Positions 13,143-21,419 of a stretch of 40,164 nucleotides of DNA are shown here, in pieces. Under the pieces are notes generated by a model. The model made no database searches, was not told the DNA's origin, and saw nothing but the letters and a program-made list of their open reading frames with translations. The translations under genes and the position numbers were made by a program. Source of the stretch: Lachnospiraceae bacterium (GTDB lineage Bacteria > Bacillota > Clostridia > Lachnospirales > Lachnospiraceae); contig JAGADU010000007.1 in NCBI GenBank assembly GCA_017613435.1, forward strand, positions 1 to 40,164. The letters run 5' to 3'. Numbering within the stretch: position 1 is the first letter of the stretch; each line of letters opens with the position of its first letter.

Positions 13143-14183
13143 ATGGCAGTGATAAGTGTACTTCAGTGCTTATTGTATTTGACAGTAATTCCTGCCTGTT
13201 TGGGAATTGCGTTTACTAAGCATTTTGACGAAAAATACAATACCTTGGGAAACATTCTTACAATCGGCTTTTTTTGCGAAACGGCCGTGTTTGAGATACT
13301 GTTTCTCGTTTTCTATAAATTCGGAAGAAACCTTACCGAGCTGACATGGGTTTCTTCGTTTGTTTTTGCGATTCTTTGCATCGTATCGATTGTTTTTTGC
13401 CGCAAAACTTTCAAAACAATAAAGAAACCGAAATTCGATTTGAGTTTCTTTGTTTTTGTTTTGTTCACGCTTTATATGATTTTTATGCGAAACTACCAGG
13501 GCGTTAACGACGGAGACGACGCGTTTGTTCTGGGCAATGCGCTTACGACGCTTACGACCGGAAGATTTTACAAGATTGATTATTACACCGGCAGAATTAT
13601 ATCGAGCGAATCTTTTACGAGGCATTTTCTTGCTTCGAATTCTATTTTCATAGCATATCTGGCCAAAGTGACATTTGTACATCCCACGATTCTTGCGCAC
13701 AGGATTTTGGGAAGTTTTGTTCTTATACTTCACAACTCGATTATTTATAATATTTCGGGAATTCTTTTTACCGGCAAAAAAGACAAATACAGAGGTCTTT
13801 TTGCTTCGTTCGTGTCCCTTATGACAATATGGGATTTCCATTCGTATTTATGCGATTCGACTTTTATTTTATCAAGAACATGGCAGGGCAAGGCAATGTT
13901 TTGCGCGCTTGCAATTCCTTTTGCGATTTACCTTTTGCTTATGATCGGTGAATGCGAGGGCAAAAAGAAAACATTGTTTGCATTGGGCTTTGTGCTCTCG
14001 GTGGCTTCGGTTTCGATGACTCCCGCAAGTATTTATCTTTTGACCATGCTTTTGACAATAGGCAGTCTTTGCGAAACTTTTGTATTAAAGAAATTCTCGA
14101 TTGTTTTGAAAAATTTGGTATCTGTTTCTCCGATGGCGGTATTTGCGCTTTTGCAGATATTTTTCATCGGTAAGGGAATTTAG
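13143..14183 (+). CDS. DUF6077-like membrane protein, N-terminal part
   Basis: 346 residues, mostly hydrophobic with about eight or nine membrane spans. Segments such as NDGDDAFVLGNALTTLTT, YYTG, HPTILAHRILG and LSRTWQGKAM match, as I recall them, the DUF6077 family of Clostridia, whose members continue with further spans and an extracytoplasmic tail. Here the frame ends in TAG TAA at 14181-14186 just after a span (FALLQIFFIGKGI), and the expected continuation lies in the next frame immediately downstream. This is therefore either one frameshifted gene or a gene split in two. Role unknown; its place in a glycan export cluster suggests envelope polysaccharide work. Confidence 0.7.
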   Translation: MAVISVLQCLLYLTVIPACLGIAFTKHFDEKYNTLGNILTIGFFCETAVFEILFLVFYKFGRNLTELTWVSSFVFAILCIVSIVFCRKTFKTIKKPKFDLSFFVFVLFTLYMIFMRNYQGVNDGDDAFVLGNALTTLTTGRFYKIDYYTGRIISSESFTRHFLASNSIFIAYLAKVTFVHPTILAHRILGSFVLILHNSIIYNISGILFTGKKDKYRGLFASFVSLMTIWDFHSYLCDSTFILSRTWQGKAMFCALAIPFAIYLLLMIGECEGKKKTLFALGFVLSVASVSMTPASIYLLTMLLTIGSLCETFVLKKFSIVLKNLVSVSPMAVFALLQIFFIGKGI

Positions 14184-14199
14184 TAAAAAGGATTTATTT

Positions 14200-14982
14200 A
14201 TGCTTGAACGCGGTTTGAACCCATTCGAAATAATTAAATTATATTCCGGAAATGCCACATTCATGCTGATGTTTGCAATGTCGCTGCTTTATCTTTGGTG
14301 CTTTGAAAAAGACAAGGTCAAAAAATCGGTTTTGGTATTCCCCTCCGTTGTGATGATTGTCCTTTTCGTATTTCCGCTGTTTTCGCATTTGTTTATGAAC
14401 AAACTCGACGAAGAGGGTACTTATTACAGATTTCTTTGGATTGTTCCGACAACCATTGTTTCTTCGTATGCTCTGTTCCATATATTGGACAGGTTCAAAA
14501 ACAAAATCGTTATGATTGCGGCTTTTGTTTTTGTGACCGTATGTATTTTAATAGGCGGAGTTTTCATGTATGATGCACCTGTTTTTTACAAGGCCGAAAA
14601 TGCATATCAGATTCCGTCCTATGTTATAGACATGTGCGATGACATGAGAATAAACGATCGCGAATACGAAGCGGTTTTCCCGGATGAAATACTTCAGTAT
14701 CCGAGACTTTACAGTGCATACATCGTGCTTCCCTACGGATTCGAAATGCTTCAGCACGGCGTGGGAGAGCATGAGGATATTCATAACGAGATGGTAAAAG
14801 ACACGATTGACGTAAAGACGCTTTCCGCTCTTTGCGAAGAAAATGTTGTGCATTATATCGTAATAAACAGCAACAAAAAACTGGACGGCAGATTCGAAGA
14901 TTATCATTACGATTTTGTCGGAGATTACGGTCCGTATAAAATGTATCGAAGCAATACTCTTTATCTTGGCAATTGGAATTAA
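14200..14982 (+). CDS. DUF6077-like membrane protein, C-terminal part
   Basis: 260 residues from the ATG at 14200, which has an AAAAGGA ribosome-like site about 7 bases upstream. The same frame is open back to 14143, overlapping the end of the previous gene. Four membrane spans (about residues 22-39, 46-72, 82-104 and 108-127) are followed by an outside domain of about 130 residues. The segment YYRFLWIVPTTIVSSYA resembles the late core of DUF6077 proteins. Removing one base near GGGAATTT (14175-14181) would join this frame to the preceding one as one protein of roughly 610 residues. Whether two chains or one are made cannot be decided from sequence. Confidence 0.65.
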   Translation: MLERGLNPFEIIKLYSGNATFMLMFAMSLLYLWCFEKDKVKKSVLVFPSVVMIVLFVFPLFSHLFMNKLDEEGTYYRFLWIVPTTIVSSYALFHILDRFKNKIVMIAAFVFVTVCILIGGVFMYDAPVFYKAENAYQIPSYVIDMCDDMRINDREYEAVFPDEILQYPRLYSAYIVLPYGFEMLQHGVGEHEDIHNEMVKDTIDVKTLSALCEENVVHYIVINSNKKLDGRFEDYHYDFVGDYGPYKMYRSNTLYLGNWN

Positions 14983-15005: not shown

Positions 15006-15758
15006 ATGAAAAAAAGACGAATTTCACTGATTATTTCCGTATTTGTAATTTTCCTCTCGCTTCTTACCGGATGCGTGAATAAATACGTTCTGGTCGAAAA
15101 AGAGGAAACACCGAACGGATTAAGCTACAGTTTTAATTACGACAAAGAAGTCGATATCACATACGATAACGAAAAAGGCCTTGAAATAACAACGGATTCG
15201 AATGTGGGCGATGGAAAAGACGCGCTTGACGAAGACGGCAGAGGCGCAAATACCGATACATATGCCGAAGGCAGGGGCGGTAACGAAGACGGTGATGAAG
15301 TACCCGACACGGATATCGATACGGATACCGACGGCAGGGGCGCAAACGACGGTTCGAAGACAAATTCAAATGATTCGGACGATAAATCGGAAAGCATCAG
15401 GGAAGACGGCGAATACACATCCAAGGATGAAGTGGCGCTGTATATTTATACCTACGGAAAACTTCCGTCCAATTATATTACAAAAGACGAAGCCAAAGAT
15501 CTGGGATGGGAAAGTTCGGAAGGAAATCTTAATGTTGTTGCCAAAGGAAAGAGCATCGGGGGCGACAAATTCGGAAACAGGGAGGGAATTCTTCCCAAAG
15601 CCAAAGGAAGACAGTATTACGAATGTGATATAGATTACGTAAAAGGAAAAAGAAACGGCAAAAGAATAGTTTATTCAAACGACGGTCTTATATATTACAC
15701 CGAAGACCATTACAATACTTACGAGCTTTTGTATGATAAGAATTCCGTTTTGGATTAG
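15006..15758 (+). CDS. lipoprotein with C-terminal barnase-type ribonuclease domain
   Basis: 250 residues from the ATG at 15006; an in-frame ATG at 14973 would precede the signal peptide. Residues 1-23 form a lipoprotein signal (KKRR, hydrophobic core, LLTGC; lipidated C23). Residues 65-135 are a very acidic linker with three GRGAN/GRGGN repeats. Residues about 138-243 are a full microbial RNase domain of the barnase type: LPSNYITKDEA, LGW, GKSIGGD, FGNREGILP, YYECDIDY, RIVYSNDGLIYYTEDHYNTY. The barnase catalytic set K27, E73, R87 and H102 corresponds to K160, E206, R220 and H235, all kept. Barnase cleaves RNA after guanosine. The enzyme should face outward, tethered to the membrane. No barstar-like gene is adjacent. 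It lies 23 bases after the DUF6077-like gene. Confidence 0.92.
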   Translation: MKKRRISLIISVFVIFLSLLTGCVNKYVLVEKEETPNGLSYSFNYDKEVDITYDNEKGLEITTDSNVGDGKDALDEDGRGANTDTYAEGRGGNEDGDEVPDTDIDTDTDGRGANDGSKTNSNDSDDKSESIREDGEYTSKDEVALYIYTYGKLPSNYITKDEAKDLGWESSEGNLNVVAKGKSIGGDKFGNREGILPKAKGRQYYECDIDYVKGKRNGKRIVYSNDGLIYYTEDHYNTYELLYDKNSVLD

Positions 15759-15782: not shown

Positions 15783-16229
15783 ATGAATATTTTTGTCAAT
15801 CAAAAAAGCATAGGAAAAAACAAGCGTGTCAAAACGATTCCGCTTGAGTATAAAGATGTCCCTGCCAATGTTTATGACCTTATAGAAAATACGGTCAGAA
15901 TCATGGTGGGGGATTTTTATAAAAGGGCAAACATGAAGGAATCCCCTTTAAGCGAAGAACAGATAAGGGATCTTTCGGAAATCGGAAGAGTGTCGTTTGG
16001 AATAATTTATAACGACAAAATGCCGGATGTTAACAAGGCGATAGAAACCGCCGTTCTTGCATATCGCGACGGACTTGTTGAAATATTCGTAAACGATGAA
16101 ATAATCGAGGTCGAATCCAAAGAGGTTACTCCTACAGACGAAGAATTAAAAAACTGCAGGATAAATCTTAAGGAAAACGACACAATAACTTTTATAAGAC
16201 TGACAATGCTTGCGGGAAGAATGTGGTGA
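15783..16229 (+). CDS. conserved hypothetical protein, DUF4132-neighbour
   Basis: 148 residues, no signal peptide or membrane span, so cytoplasmic. It opens with a beta-like MNIFVNQKSIGKNK, has a central motif IGRVSFGIIYNDK-PDV-KAIETAVLAYRDGLVEIFVN, and ends in TFIRLTMLAGRMW. I recall similar small proteins with a GKVGFG core and a FIRLTLLAGRMW tail lying beside DUF4132 proteins in other Firmicutes, but could not check this. It sits 24 bases after the RNase gene and 27 before the giant DUF4132 gene, each with a G-rich ribosome site and no terminator. It does not resemble barstar in length or sequence. Function unknown. Confidence 0.75.
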   Translation: MNIFVNQKSIGKNKRVKTIPLEYKDVPANVYDLIENTVRIMVGDFYKRANMKESPLSEEQIRDLSEIGRVSFGIIYNDKMPDVNKAIETAVLAYRDGLVEIFVNDEIIEVESKEVTPTDEELKNCRINLKENDTITFIRLTMLAGRMW

Positions 16230-16256
16230 TTAACAAAAAAAGTCAAGGGGGCAAAA

Positions 16257-19200
16257 ATGAGCGATTCATATAATCTTTACAAAGAAGCGAATAACAGAAT
16301 AAATAAAGACATAGATGTCAAATTTGCGAAAACATGTCCTGATTTTCGAAGGATTTACAATGAGATTCTCGGAGTTTCGTCGGTTACGGCAAACGGTCTT
16401 GAAAAAAGATACAAAGAAGCCTTAAAGAAAGGTAAGCCATCCGATTTTTTCAAAAATTACGAATCGGATTTGTATGTGATGATAAGACCCGATTTGGTTC
16501 CCGTTTTTTATTATGAAATAGACCGTGTAAGGGAATATCAATATGATGACGGTTATTACCGAAGAAGTTTCAGAAGCAGCGATTATTGCACATATATTAA
16601 ACTGATTAACAAAATATTAAAGCAATTCGTTTATTTTTCATCAATGAAAGTTGATATAAACGATTATGTGTCGAATAATTTGCCGGAAGATTTAAAGGTT
16701 TATAAAACTTATATATACGGAAGAGTGGAAATACCTTTTGTTATTGCCGGTGCTATCGATTCGGGTGACGAGAGAATCAAAAATACCATCGAAGATGTCG
16801 TTATCAATTCGACCGCCGATGTTTCCGTCGAACTGTTTAGGGGAATTTTTGCGTCCAAGGACAAAGAAATGTACGCCCTGATGGAAAAACTTCTTTTGGC
16901 GGCACGCCTGCAGGAAGGCCTCAGACAGTCCGTCTGTGAAAACATGGATTTCGGAACAAGAGAAGCTTTTGAATACATGTTCAAAGTCATAACGGACAAC
17001 GATCTTTTGCGTTTTGCTTCGATTGAACGTGCAATGGACGTATTTACCGGACTTTTGGCAGCCGATGAAAAAGAGTCGGGCCGCATTACCAAAAAACATG
17101 CCGCGTTGATATCAAAATATTTAGAAAACGATTCCGAAATCGAAAAAGCATTTCTCGGAAACGATCATATGGAAATATATCTGGCACTTTGGGCAATAGG
17201 TACAAGAAGCATAGAAGATGCCGTAAACAAAGCCGAAGAACTTATTTGCAAAGAAAATCGCGAACAAAGCCTTACAGGTGCATTTTTCCTTAAACATAAC
17301 TGTAAAAATTCCGCCCGGTTATTGAGAATAATCGAGAAAAAAACCGACAGCCTCGACATCATAGCTCTTTTGATGGGCGGTTTTATGACCAATCCCATCC
17401 CCGCAATGGTTGATGCGGTCCATAAAAAAGACGGAAAATATCGCGAATACGTCACACATCGTGTATTTATCAACCCCACATATTATTTTGCGGATGAAAA
17501 CGAATCAAGGGATGCATATTTTATTCTCAAGAAGATAAAAGAAAAGCTCCCAGAGAAAAAGGTCGAATTCGAAGGCCTTGTATTCCCATGGGGAAAAGAT
17601 ACTCTGACAAAGAACGACTGCATCTCGAAAATGGCTTTTTGCGCAAGTGCGGCACATGATACGGTCTTAACTCTTGAAGTGGCAAAGGACATAACTCTTG
17701 TAGACAAATATGAGAGAGAATCTGCTTTGGCATTGCTTTTAAACGAGCCCGAAAACAGAGAAGAATACGAGATTTTGACAAGGGCGCTTTCCGATGCGGA
17801 AGAGATTACGAGAAGTCGTGCCAACACGATGTTAAAACATGAGCTTTCGCGCGACACTTCAAAACTTGATTCCGATATAAGAGCGACATCGGGTAAGCTT
17901 CCCGCGTTCTGTTATGAGATCATGGAAGAAATGCTAAGATTAAAGAGAGCCGATTTAAGGCAGAATGTTATTTCTTTTTTGATGACGATGGAAGACGAAG
18001 AAAAAGTCGAAACGATAGAGAGACTTTTGTCAGACAAATCGGAAGAGAAAAGAACTGCCGGTCTTGACATTATCTTACAGTTAAAAAAGAACGATTCTCC
18101 CTGTTACGAAAAAGCGGCCGAAAAGACGAAGGTCATTTCTTCTCCCACAACGAAGGAGCAGGTTCTTTTGGATGAAATAAATGCCTCATCGGGGGATGCA
18201 TCTTCTGTTACTGGCGAAATTGCTTTGTTTGATCCCGATGCCGATTATAAGCCCGTTATCGACAGTGTTTATGTAAATGAATGCAACGAAGTGTGGAATC
18301 GCGTATTTCCCAACAAGAAAATCGGCAAAAAAATATTCTCCCCGAAGAATAAGGTCGATGATTACAAGATTTTGCATGAACTCGACAAACTGATAGAAAA
18401 GAATAAAAATCTTGAATACGAAGCATGGGGCGACAAAGTACTTCTTGGTAACGGTATCCGCACTTATTTTGAGGACGGAAAAAGAGTTTATCCTTTTACG
18501 GATCTTTGGGATTCTTTTTTCGACGAATCGATTAAAAGCGATGAAGAACTTGTAAGACTGGCATTTCTCAGCGTAAGGTCGACAAAGGGATATGATGTCG
18601 AAGTCGTTAAGGGCTTTAACGGTTTTTGCGAAAAATATATCAAGGAGTATTTTGATGCGGACAATATCGTAATCAATCCGAAGGATTACATGCATCTGCC
18701 GATAGTTATGTCGGTAATTGATTATTATTGCGAAAAACATGATTTGGCTCTTATAAAATCCATGGTCGGAGCCGCAGTGTTAAATCATGTTGTTTTATCC
18801 GACGATTCGATGATTTTCTCGTTTACGAAAGATGATATCGTAAATACGCAAAGAGACAGAATCACTCAGACGAAATTCCAAAGAACTCCTTTTATGGATC
18901 ACGGATTTGCTTTTTTCATAAATTCCATTAATCATAATTATAAAAATTTCCCGATTAAATATGAATTTATACAAAAGTATGAAGGCGATTATTTAAAGGA
19001 TTCCGATTTGCTAAAAAGCGCACAGAATTACTACACTTATCGGGAAAAAACAAGTTATCCGAGCATAGGAGAGTACGTTTCGGCATGCGCAAACGGAATT
19101 ATTTCCAAAGACTTTTTGTATAAGAGGATTTTCGACGGCAATGAAAAAGAAGCGATTGAACTTCTTTCTTCCGTGATTATTTTCATACGTGAAAGCAAAG

Positions 19201-21419
19201 ATGCCAAATCAACCAGAGTCAAAAGATATTTTTACAGATTAAACAGCTTATTGGCAGGACTTTTGGGAAGAAGAAACGTAAGAGAAAAAATCGATCCCGA
19301 ATCCATTACAAAAGAGGAATCAAAGATTCTTGACATGGCGGAAGAAAGCTATGAGAAAGTAATTTCATACATTGTCGGAGGGGAACTTCGACGAGGCGAT
19401 TCGCCGACCAAATATTCAGGTTATATAACTTCGGTCGGAAGACTTTACGGAATCGACAATTTTGTTGGTATATTAAAGGCCTTCGGAAAAGGAACGTTCA
19501 ACCGATCCAAGTATTTTTACGGAAGCGTCACTTCCAAGGAGGACGTCCTTTCGCATCTTCTCGGCGTTTGCGTTCCCGATGCTAGGGAGGGAGATTTAAA
19601 AGAACAGGCAGCCAAACTTAAAGAGAAGATAAAAGGAACGGATATAAAAGAAAAGAGACTTATTGAGGCTGCGCTTTATTCTCCCGAATGGGTCGATATC
19701 ATCGGAGAGCTTTTGCAGATAGAAGGATTCCGCTCGGGCTGCTATTATTTCATGGCACATATGAATGAGGAATTTGACGATAAGAGAAAGGCAGCCATTG
19801 CAAAATATTCGCCTATTTCCGCAGAAGAATTCAATGCGGGTGCTTTTGACAAGACCTGGTTTGACGAAGTATATGCAATACTCGGCGAAAAGAAATTCGA
19901 TGAGATTTATGATGCAGCAAAATATATATCGGACGGTTCGAAGCATGCGCGTGCAAGAAAATATGCGGATGCCGCAACCGGCAAACTTGATGCGAAAAAG
20001 ACAAGAGAAGAGATAGAAAAGAAGAGAAACAAAGATTTGCTTATGGCTTATGCGATCATTGACGGAAGCGATAAGGAAATCCGCGACAGGTATTCCTATA
20101 TCAGACGGTTTATCAAGGAAAGCAGACAATTCGGCGCGCAAAGAAGGGCGAGCGAAAAACTCGCAGGCGAAACCGCGATTAAGAACATGGCTACATCGCA
20201 GGGTTACCCCGACGAAACAAGATTTGTTCTTAAAATGGAAAATGAAATAGCGTCCGAGCTTGCCTGTTACTTTGACATGCAAAAAGTCGGCGATGTTGAA
20301 ATGTGTCTTGCGGTTGAAGCGGGCAAGGTTTGCATCAAAGTGGTAAAGGGCGGAAAGGAATTAAAATCGATGCCCGCAGCACTAAAGAAAGACGAGCATG
20401 CAGTCGATTTGCAGGAAGCAAAGCAGGCTTTTACCGAACAGTACAGAAGAACAAAAATCATGTTCGAGGAAGCAATGGAGAGCAAGACTTCCTTCAAAAA
20501 AGAAGAGATTGACGCATTAAGAAACAATCCCGTACTTACGGATATGATTGATGCGCTCGTATTTGAATGCGACAACAAATTCGGATTCTTAAAGGATCTT
20601 GATGTCAAAAAGGATGCGGATGTTTATGTCGCTCATTCATATACGATGTTCAAAGCGGGCGTATGGAAAGACATGCAGTCCGCGGTATACGAGAACGGAA
20701 TCGTTCAGCCTTTCAAACAGGTATTCCGTGAACTCTATGTAAAAACGGATGAAGAAATAAACGCATATGATTCGAGACGTTATGCGGGCAATCAGATTCA
20801 GACGAAAAAGACCGTCGGCGCTTTAAAGAGCAGAAGATGGGTTGCCGATATTGAAGAAGGATTGCAAAAGGTTTATTACAAAGAGAATATTATCGCAACG
20901 ATTTATGCTCTTGCGGACTGGTTTTCTCCTTCGGATGTCGAAGCTCCGACGCTCGAGTGGGTTGCGTTCATTGACAGAAAAAAAGGAACTCCTCTTCAGA
21001 TAAAAGAAGTTCCCGACATAATATTCTCGGAAGTAATGCGAGATGTGGATTTGGCCGTAAGCGTAGCTCATGCGGGAGAAGTGGATCCCGAAATGTCGCA
21101 TTCAACCGTTGAAATGCGCCGTGCCATTGCGGAATTTGCATGTAAGAGCTTCAAACTTAAGAATGTTTCCTTTACGGACAGCCATGCGCTTGTTAAAGGA
21201 AGCAGGGCGAATTATACAATTCATCTCGGAAGCGGAATCGTTCACCTTGAAGGCGGTTTGATGATTAATGTTCTTCCGGTTCATTCGCAGAAACGCGGAA
21301 GAATCTTCCTTCCTTTTGTGGATGACGATCCTAAGACCGCGGAGATTATTTCCAAGATTCTTTTGTTTGCCGAAGACGAAAAGATAAAAGATCCGTTTAT
21401 TATTAATCAGATCGTTTAA
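16257..21419 (+). CDS. giant DUF4132-domain protein (1720 aa)
   Basis: 1720 residues, cytoplasmic, no membrane segment. The middle (about 480-640) consists of HEAT-like helical pairs such as EKVETIERLLSDKSEEKRTAGLDIIL. The C-terminal 300 residues carry the DUF4132 landmarks DVYVAHSY, W1463-region, then GIVQPFKQVFRELY, RRYAGNQI, and the end FLPFVDDDPKTAEIISKI and KIKDPFIINQI. The family (which as I recall includes E. coli MolR/YehI relatives) has no settled biochemical function; several members lie in predicted conflict or regulatory loci. No nuclease or NTPase motif was found by eye. It ends 21 bases from the convergent deacetylase gene without a clear terminator. Confidence 0.85.
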   Translation: MSDSYNLYKEANNRINKDIDVKFAKTCPDFRRIYNEILGVSSVTANGLEKRYKEALKKGKPSDFFKNYESDLYVMIRPDLVPVFYYEIDRVREYQYDDGYYRRSFRSSDYCTYIKLINKILKQFVYFSSMKVDINDYVSNNLPEDLKVYKTYIYGRVEIPFVIAGAIDSGDERIKNTIEDVVINSTADVSVELFRGIFASKDKEMYALMEKLLLAARLQEGLRQSVCENMDFGTREAFEYMFKVITDNDLLRFASIERAMDVFTGLLAADEKESGRITKKHAALISKYLENDSEIEKAFLGNDHMEIYLALWAIGTRSIEDAVNKAEELICKENREQSLTGAFFLKHNCKNSARLLRIIEKKTDSLDIIALLMGGFMTNPIPAMVDAVHKKDGKYREYVTHRVFINPTYYFADENESRDAYFILKKIKEKLPEKKVEFEGLVFPWGKDTLTKNDCISKMAFCASAAHDTVLTLEVAKDITLVDKYERESALALLLNEPENREEYEILTRALSDAEEITRSRANTMLKHELSRDTSKLDSDIRATSGKLPAFCYEIMEEMLRLKRADLRQNVISFLMTMEDEEKVETIERLLSDKSEEKRTAGLDIILQLKKNDSPCYEKAAEKTKVISSPTTKEQVLLDEINASSGDASSVTGEIALFDPDADYKPVIDSVYVNECNEVWNRVFPNKKIGKKIFSPKNKVDDYKILHELDKLIEKNKNLEYEAWGDKVLLGNGIRTYFEDGKRVYPFTDLWDSFFDESIKSDEELVRLAFLSVRSTKGYDVEVVKGFNGFCEKYIKEYFDADNIVINPKDYMHLPIVMSVIDYYCEKHDLALIKSMVGAAVLNHVVLSDDSMIFSFTKDDIVNTQRDRITQTKFQRTPFMDHGFAFFINSINHNYKNFPIKYEFIQKYEGDYLKDSDLLKSAQNYYTYREKTSYPSIGEYVSACANGIISKDFLYKRIFDGNEKEAIELLSSVIIFIRESKDAKSTRVKRYFYRLNSLLAGLLGRRNVREKIDPESITKEESKILDMAEESYEKVISYIVGGELRRGDSPTKYSGYITSVGRLYGIDNFVGILKAFGKGTFNRSKYFYGSVTSKEDVLSHLLGVCVPDAREGDLKEQAAKLKEKIKGTDIKEKRLIEAALYSPEWVDIIGELLQIEGFRSGCYYFMAHMNEEFDDKRKAAIAKYSPISAEEFNAGAFDKTWFDEVYAILGEKKFDEIYDAAKYISDGSKHARARKYADAATGKLDAKKTREEIEKKRNKDLLMAYAIIDGSDKEIRDRYSYIRRFIKESRQFGAQRRASEKLAGETAIKNMATSQGYPDETRFVLKMENEIASELACYFDMQKVGDVEMCLAVEAGKVCIKVVKGGKELKSMPAALKKDEHAVDLQEAKQAFTEQYRRTKIMFEEAMESKTSFKKEEIDALRNNPVLTDMIDALVFECDNKFGFLKDLDVKKDADVYVAHSYTMFKAGVWKDMQSAVYENGIVQPFKQVFRELYVKTDEEINAYDSRRYAGNQIQTKKTVGALKSRRWVADIEEGLQKVYYKENIIATIYALADWFSPSDVEAPTLEWVAFIDRKKGTPLQIKEVPDIIFSEVMRDVDLAVSVAHAGEVDPEMSHSTVEMRRAIAEFACKSFKLKNVSFTDSHALVKGSRANYTIHLGSGIVHLEGGLMINVLPVHSQKRGRIFLPFVDDDPKTAEIISKILLFAEDEKIKDPFIINQIV

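What the first reader, a model, noticed from the sequence alone, without database searches (positions are those of the whole stretch)
15006..15758. Membrane-tethered barnase without a neighbouring barstar
The C-terminal domain is unmistakably barnase-like and keeps all four catalytic residues (K160, E206, R220, H235), yet it sits behind a lipoprotein signal and a 70-residue acidic linker instead of being freely secreted. Classic barnase producers need intracellular barstar to survive; no barstar-like gene of about 90 residues is adjacent. A surface-tethered RNase could degrade extracellular RNA for nutrition, act as a contact-dependent toxin, or be released by proteolysis in the linker.
Basis: partly seen in the sequence, partly recalled or inferred. 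Interest (0 to 1): 0.75.

Follow-up and report, generated by a model that had tools for sequence, protein, structure and literature searches.

The report
Lipid-anchored barnase; barstar lies elsewhere
The gene encodes a barnase-type RNA-cutting enzyme probably tied to the outside of a gut bacterium, and its protective inhibitor gene is present after all, on another piece of the same genome, so this is a largely ordinary barnase-barstar pair.

Summary
Window 15006-15758 (+) encodes 250 aa with a lipobox (LLTG-C23), a 113-residue acidic linker and a barnase domain 62 of 100 residues identical to barnase, keeping all ten key positions checked. No barstar is beside it.

The inference drawn from that fails. 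The genome has a barstar on contig C128 (PF01337, 1.2e-13), with Y29, D35 and D39 kept. In the genus, 15 of 31 genomes have the barnase and 13 a barstar; all 13 have both. In the two barnase-only genomes the contig ends inside glyA, on the barstar side. In 12 genomes the two genes are unlinked, at conserved loci, 125 kb apart in the genome matching isolate G41. Family-wide, 41 of 48 barnases have barstar adjacent, so this lineage differs only in linkage. Bacillus barnase and binase are not in an operon with their inhibitor either (PMC5021464, passages). Lipoboxes occur in 15 of 15 genus and 33 of 47 other family barnases.

Most likely it is a surface-anchored scavenging RNase with cytoplasmic barstar as safeguard; activity and location are untested.

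The parts
15006..15758 (+). lipoprotein-type barnase gene, 250 aa
   Evidence: PF00545 66.7 bits
15006..15074 (+). signal peptide and lipobox LLTG-C23 (cleavage by lipoprotein signal peptidase before C23 inferred)
   Evidence: sequence; lipobox pattern in 15 of 15 genus members
15075..15413 (+). acidic low-complexity linker, residues 24-136 (34 D/E, 11 K/R); 77-140 residues in the 15 genus members
15423..15725 (+). barnase domain, residues 140-240, with K160, R192, E206, R216, R220, H235
   Evidence: five of the six are invariant in the 26-sequence alignment, R192 is not

Best explanation
It is a lipid-anchored barnase-type ribonuclease whose inhibitor barstar is encoded in trans. Shown by sequence: lipobox, low-complexity acidic linker, barnase domain with intact catalytic and barstar-contact residues, and a barstar gene at a second conserved locus. 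Inferred: the protein is exported unfolded by Sec, lipidated at C23 and held on the outer face of the membrane, with the linker carrying the RNase out through the wall; it cuts extracellular RNA, most likely to scavenge phosphate and nucleosides; cytoplasmic barstar neutralises molecules that fold before export or come back in.
For: Domain and residues. Barstar in the same genome: PF01337 1.2e-13 on C128, 84-aa ORF; a profile of 11 of the 12 unlinked genus copies matches PDB barstars, best 5.8e-09; Y29/D35/D39 kept. Genus: 15 of 31 barnase, 13 of 31 barstar, 0 barstar-only; in the 2 barnase-only genomes (G200, G227) the contig stops inside glyA on the barstar side. Unlinked in 12 of 13 genomes that have both: barstar in the glyA neighbourhood in 12 of 12, barnase beside genes of the window in 11 of 12 (G223's 3.6-kb contig shows none). 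G220, whose contig length equals FNEU01000001.1 of isolate G41, has both on one contig 125 kb apart. Purifying selection: dN/dS median 0.054 (18 unsaturated of 91 pairs) for the barnase domain, 0.135 (32 of 66 pairs) for barstar. Family: 45 of 48 barnase genomes have a barstar, 41 adjacent. Lipobox in 15 of 15 genus and 33 of 47 other family barnases. Nutritional role by analogy: balifase and binase are induced by phosphate starvation (PMC5021464, passages).
Against: No expression, localisation or activity data. The genus co-occurrence is close to one phylogenetic event: 14 of the 15 barnase genomes stand together by glyA identity (90-100% to G000, against 84-87% for the rest and for G216), so it is weak as independent evidence. 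In the family 10 genomes have barstar without barnase. The barstar profile match covers only positions 3-46 of 96; the C-terminal part is diverged and short. Nearly all pairs that include the window's own gene are saturated at synonymous sites. The domain's computed pI is 5.9, whereas balifase is basic (8.91, PMC5021464). None of the neighbouring genes scanned points to phosphate or nucleotide metabolism; upstream is a polysaccharide or teichoic-acid type export pair. Binding of this barstar to this barnase was not modelled.
Confidence: 0.66

Rival explanations
1. A surface-held contact-dependent toxin aimed at neighbouring cells, with barstar as immunity protein.
For: Barnase-barstar is a known polymorphic-toxin/immunity cassette (PMC3482391, passages). 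In the same bacterial family barnase domains do occur on LXG (G082) and DUF4280 (G172) proteins. Barstar occurs with the barnase in the genus.
Against: Only PF00545 was matched in this protein, no LXG, WXG, RHS or other delivery domain. Linkers vary in length while the domain stays close to barnase (62 of 100) with dN/dS about 0.05 in the genus, unlike a diversifying toxin tip. No barstar sits next to it; the 148-aa ORF that follows has no Pfam match, so an unrelated immunity gene there is not excluded. A lipid-anchored Gram-positive protein has no evident route into another cytoplasm (inference).
Confidence: 0.2
2. A barstar-free barnase in which membrane tethering itself gives safety.
For: No barstar within the 40-kb window.
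Against: Barstar on C128 in the same bin, in a gene context shared by 12 genomes of the genus, and grouping with them (94/88).
Confidence: 0.04
3. The RNase is mainly released: the linker is cleaved and the domain acts as a free secreted enzyme, the anchor being transient.
For: The linker is long and low in complexity in all 15 genus members (77-140 residues); 9 of 47 other family barnases have a non-lipobox hydrophobic N-terminal segment instead.
Against: The consensus shows no conserved linker stretch apart from the EDGEYTSK-like stretch at the domain's edge; no search for cleavage motifs was run. The lipobox cysteine is nearly invariant in those 26 proteins.
Confidence: 0.1

Closest known systems
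Barnase / binase (RNase N1/T1 family, Pfam PF00545)
   Same: 62 of 100 residues identical, ungapped, all ten catalytic and contact positions checked are kept; inhibitor gene not adjacent, and those Bacillus genes are said not to be in an operon with theirs (PMC5021464, passages)
   Different: lipoprotein signal and 113-residue acidic linker instead of a freely secreted small basic enzyme; acidic computed pI
Linked barnase-barstar pairs (balifase of B. licheniformis, PMC5021464 passages; most barnases of this bacterial family)
   Same: same two protein families; 33 of 47 other family barnases also have a lipobox
   Different: there the two genes are adjacent (41 of 48 family genomes); here they are unlinked, at conserved loci
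Polymorphic toxins with Tox-Barnase domain (LXG or DUF4280 proteins)
   Same: same toxin domain family, found in G082 and G172 of the same bacterial family
   Different: no delivery domain here, no adjacent barstar

Membership tests
Barnase family (PF00545) | profile score over curated cut-off | tested here: met
   66.7 bits against 24
Barnase family (PF00545) | catalytic residues E73, R83, R87, H102 and K27, R59 (roles recalled) | tested here: met
   E206, R216, R220, H235, K160, R192
Barnase family (PF00545) | barnase fold | tested here: inconclusive
   ungapped 101-residue alignment to solved barnases; structure prediction switched off
Barnase family (PF00545) | guanyl-preferring RNase activity | not testable with these tools
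   needs an assay
Barnase-barstar pair | a barstar gene in the same genome | tested here: met
   PF01337 1.2e-13, C128; 84-aa ORF
Barnase-barstar pair | barstar contact residues Y29, D35, D39 (recalled) | tested here: met
   D35 and D39 invariant, Y29 in at least 90% of 11 sequences, all present in this genome's copy
Barnase-barstar pair | the two proteins bind | not testable with these tools
   no complex modelling available
Gram-positive lipoprotein | signal peptide with lipobox and invariant cysteine | tested here: met
   LLTG-C23; C23 nearly invariant in 26 aligned proteins
Gram-positive lipoprotein | lipidation and membrane location | not testable with these tools
   needs labelling or fractionation
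Polymorphic (contact-delivered) toxin | delivery or trafficking domain (LXG, WXG, RHS and the like) | tested here: not met
   only PF00545 matched
Polymorphic (contact-delivered) toxin | adjacent immunity gene | tested here: inconclusive
   no barstar nearby; the 148-aa ORF downstream is unassigned

The most novel reading that the evidence does not exclude
In this Lachnospiraceae clade the pair has been stably split into two inherited loci: an RNase held on the surface, encoded next to polysaccharide or teichoic-acid type export genes, and a separately controlled cytoplasmic barstar. It might then act as a standing surface weapon or shield, destroying incoming or neighbours' RNA at the envelope, with barstar level setting who survives.
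Probability: 0.12. Interest if true: 0.5.

Novelty: new member of a known kind. Interest (0 to 1): 0.18.

Why it matters
It shows that 'no barstar next door' is not evidence for a barstar-free barnase: a whole-genome search and a look at sister genomes turn the apparent orphan into a pair kept at two loci. It also suggests that lipid-anchored barnases are common in this bacterial family, whereas the textbook enzyme is freely secreted; whether the anchored form feeds the cell or harms neighbours is a simple open question.

Tried and rejected
Rejected: 'no barstar' (one search found one; searches show it in the clade's own gene context and group, beside the only glyA of the bin at E up to 1e-50, so contamination is unlikely). 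Rejected: filing it as a polymorphic toxin (no delivery domain). Little yield: promoter and terminator scans around the barnase (3 promoter-like sites, shuffles 2.0; 0 terminator-like, shuffles 1.0) and around barstar (8 promoter-like, shuffles 4.6; 2 terminator-like, both on the other strand, shuffles 1.1), so common control could not be judged; NCBIfam gave no name for barnase or barstar; PADLOC no match at E up to 0.01; structure prediction unavailable, so no fold search was made. One alignment with a wrong range (A1) was not used. The Fisher values (family 45/3/10/142, genus 13/2/0/16) ignore kinship; the genus one is close to a single clade and I do not lean on it.

Results against a simple picture: in the barnase tree G206, at the same locus as the others, pairs with another genus (97/78), and G216, with an adjacent pair at a different locus, is also outside the genus group of 13 (80/88); its bootstrap had not settled. 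In G219 barstar stands on the far side of the sulfatase gene. The lipobox count uses a home-made pattern and errs: L198, counted as not lipoprotein, looks like one.

Papers: barnase + barstar + Lachnospiraceae, and barnase + barstar + Bacillus amyloliquefaciens + unlinked, gave none; barnase + lipoprotein + polymorphic toxin gave 5, of which I saw passages of PMC3482391 only; some searches were seen as listings. Passages of PMC8837141 and PMC8625414 said nothing on where the barstar gene lies.

Full report
Observation. The ORF is real and where stated: 15006-15758 (+), ATG start, 250 aa. Pfam PF00545 scores 66.7 bits against a cut-off of 24 and phmmer aligns residues 140-240 without gaps to barnase-type chains at about 1e-33. 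Against a barnase line printed, 62 of 100 residues are identical, and K27, D54, N58, R59, E60, E73, R83, R87, H102 and Y103 are all kept. The N-terminus has a signal peptide with lipobox LLTG-C23, then 113 residues, 75% of them D, E, G, S, N, T, P, Q or K (34 acidic, 11 basic).

Barstar. A search of the whole draft genome (2.1 Mb, 146 contigs, 84% complete) with PF01337 at E up to 10 gives one match, 1.2e-13, over its cut-off, on contig C128. It is an 84-aa ORF, 78 aa from the likely ATG. A profile of 11 of the 12 unlinked genus copies finds PDB barstars at 5.8e-09, over positions 4-42. D35 and D39 are invariant in the 11 copies and Y29 nearly so. The C-terminal part is diverged and short. PF00545 has a single match in the genome, the window gene.

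Genus. 15 of 31 genomes have PF00545 and 13 of 31 have PF01337; all 13 have both; none has barstar alone. The two barnase-only genomes, G200 and G227 (80% and 86% complete), have glyA fragments that run off the contig end on the side where barstar stands in the others. In 12 genomes (G000 included) the genes are unlinked. Barstar lies in the neighbourhood of glyA, a small secreted-type gene and a sulfatase-domain gene (PF00884) in all 12: between the sulfatase gene and the small gene in 11, with one further ORF in three of these (G210, G211, G205), and on the far side of the sulfatase gene in G219. The barnase lies beside homologues of the window's own neighbours (export transporter, methyltransferase, DUF6077, or the adhE-type and following genes) in 11 of 12; G223's contig is too short to show any. 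In G220 both loci are on one contig, 252 kb and 377 kb from its start; its contig length equals FNEU01000001.1 of Lachnospiraceae bacterium G41, whose title does not call it a MAG. G216 alone has the two adjacent, elsewhere in its genome.

Genomes without the pair (16 of 31). At glyA I fetched 11 of them; 10 had some flank on the barstar side (G225 only part, G224 next to none) and no barstar shows, in line; a distant homologue of the small gene (26-34% identity) remains in 5 (G120, G204, G213, G201, G203). At the transporter locus 8 of them and G216 were read and no barnase stands there. By glyA identity to G000, 14 of the 15 barnase genomes are at 90% or more and the rest at 84-87% (3 genomes without a match), so the pair marks one side of the genus.

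Evolution. Barstars of the 12 form one group (94/88); barnases of 13 genus genomes form one group (80/88), with G206 and G216 outside. Both genes are under purifying selection in the genus (dN/dS median 0.054 and 0.135; 18 of 91 and 32 of 66 pairs usable).

Family. Of 200 genomes (199 genera), 48 have barnase, 55 barstar, 45 both. In 41 of 48 the two are on the same strand with domain matches within 314 bp; 4 (G000, G007, G072, G193) have both but apart; 3 have no barstar at E up to 0.001, and of these G082 is an LXG protein, G172 a DUF4280 protein and G112 has a stop in frame. By a home-made pattern, 33 of the 47 barnases other than G000's have a lipobox, 9 another hydrophobic N-terminal segment, 5 none found. 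All 15 genus barnases have a lipobox and a 77-140 residue linker. Among 80 named relatives the figures are 51, 23 and 6; 13 of the 80 are the genus genomes again.

Literature. In passages of PMC5021464 the B. [quoted passage not shown] phosphate starvation induces the enzyme. [quoted passage not shown]

Interpretation. The protein is a lipid-anchored barnase with barstar in trans. Anatomy and pairing are well supported by sequence; export, anchoring, RNA degradation outside the cell and nutritional use are inferred. What remains mildly notable is that in a family where the pair is mostly adjacent, one clade keeps it at two conserved loci.

Noticed in passing
window 15783-21419 (+): Directly after the barnase lie a 148-aa ORF with no Pfam match and a 1720-aa protein with DUF5724, DUF4132 and DUF7737. 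In 10 of the 11 clade relatives with a readable downstream flank an ORF of 478-491 aa stands there instead (G215 differs; the one scanned has no Pfam match). No PADLOC model matched either window protein at E up to 0.01.
   Followed up: partly
L097:1-3000 (-), genome G216: Barstar runs in one open frame, without a stop, into a GH3-type glycosidase (PF01915, PF00933, PF14310), directly downstream of a lipobox-bearing barnase; a fusion, a GTG start for the second gene, or an assembly artefact.
   Followed up: partly
L105:1793-2161 (-): A 122-aa secreted-type protein with no Pfam match over cut-off stands near barstar and glyA; homologues at 26-34% identity stay near glyA in 5 genomes that lack barstar.
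   Followed up: partly
L091:5847-6605 (+): Most clade relatives have an ORF of about 210-290 aa just upstream of the barnase (alike by eye, not clustered; the one scanned has no Pfam match over cut-off); the window lacks it.
   Followed up: no
L130 (G082) and L131 (G172): Barnase domains on LXG and DUF4280 proteins with no barstar found in those genomes at E up to 0.001; their immunity genes were not sought.
   Followed up: no
window 13143-14982 (+): DUF6077 protein and an overlapping second ORF, also two ORFs in the relatives whose flank covers both, after a Wzm/Wzt or TagGH-like transporter pair and a methyltransferase.
   Followed up: no
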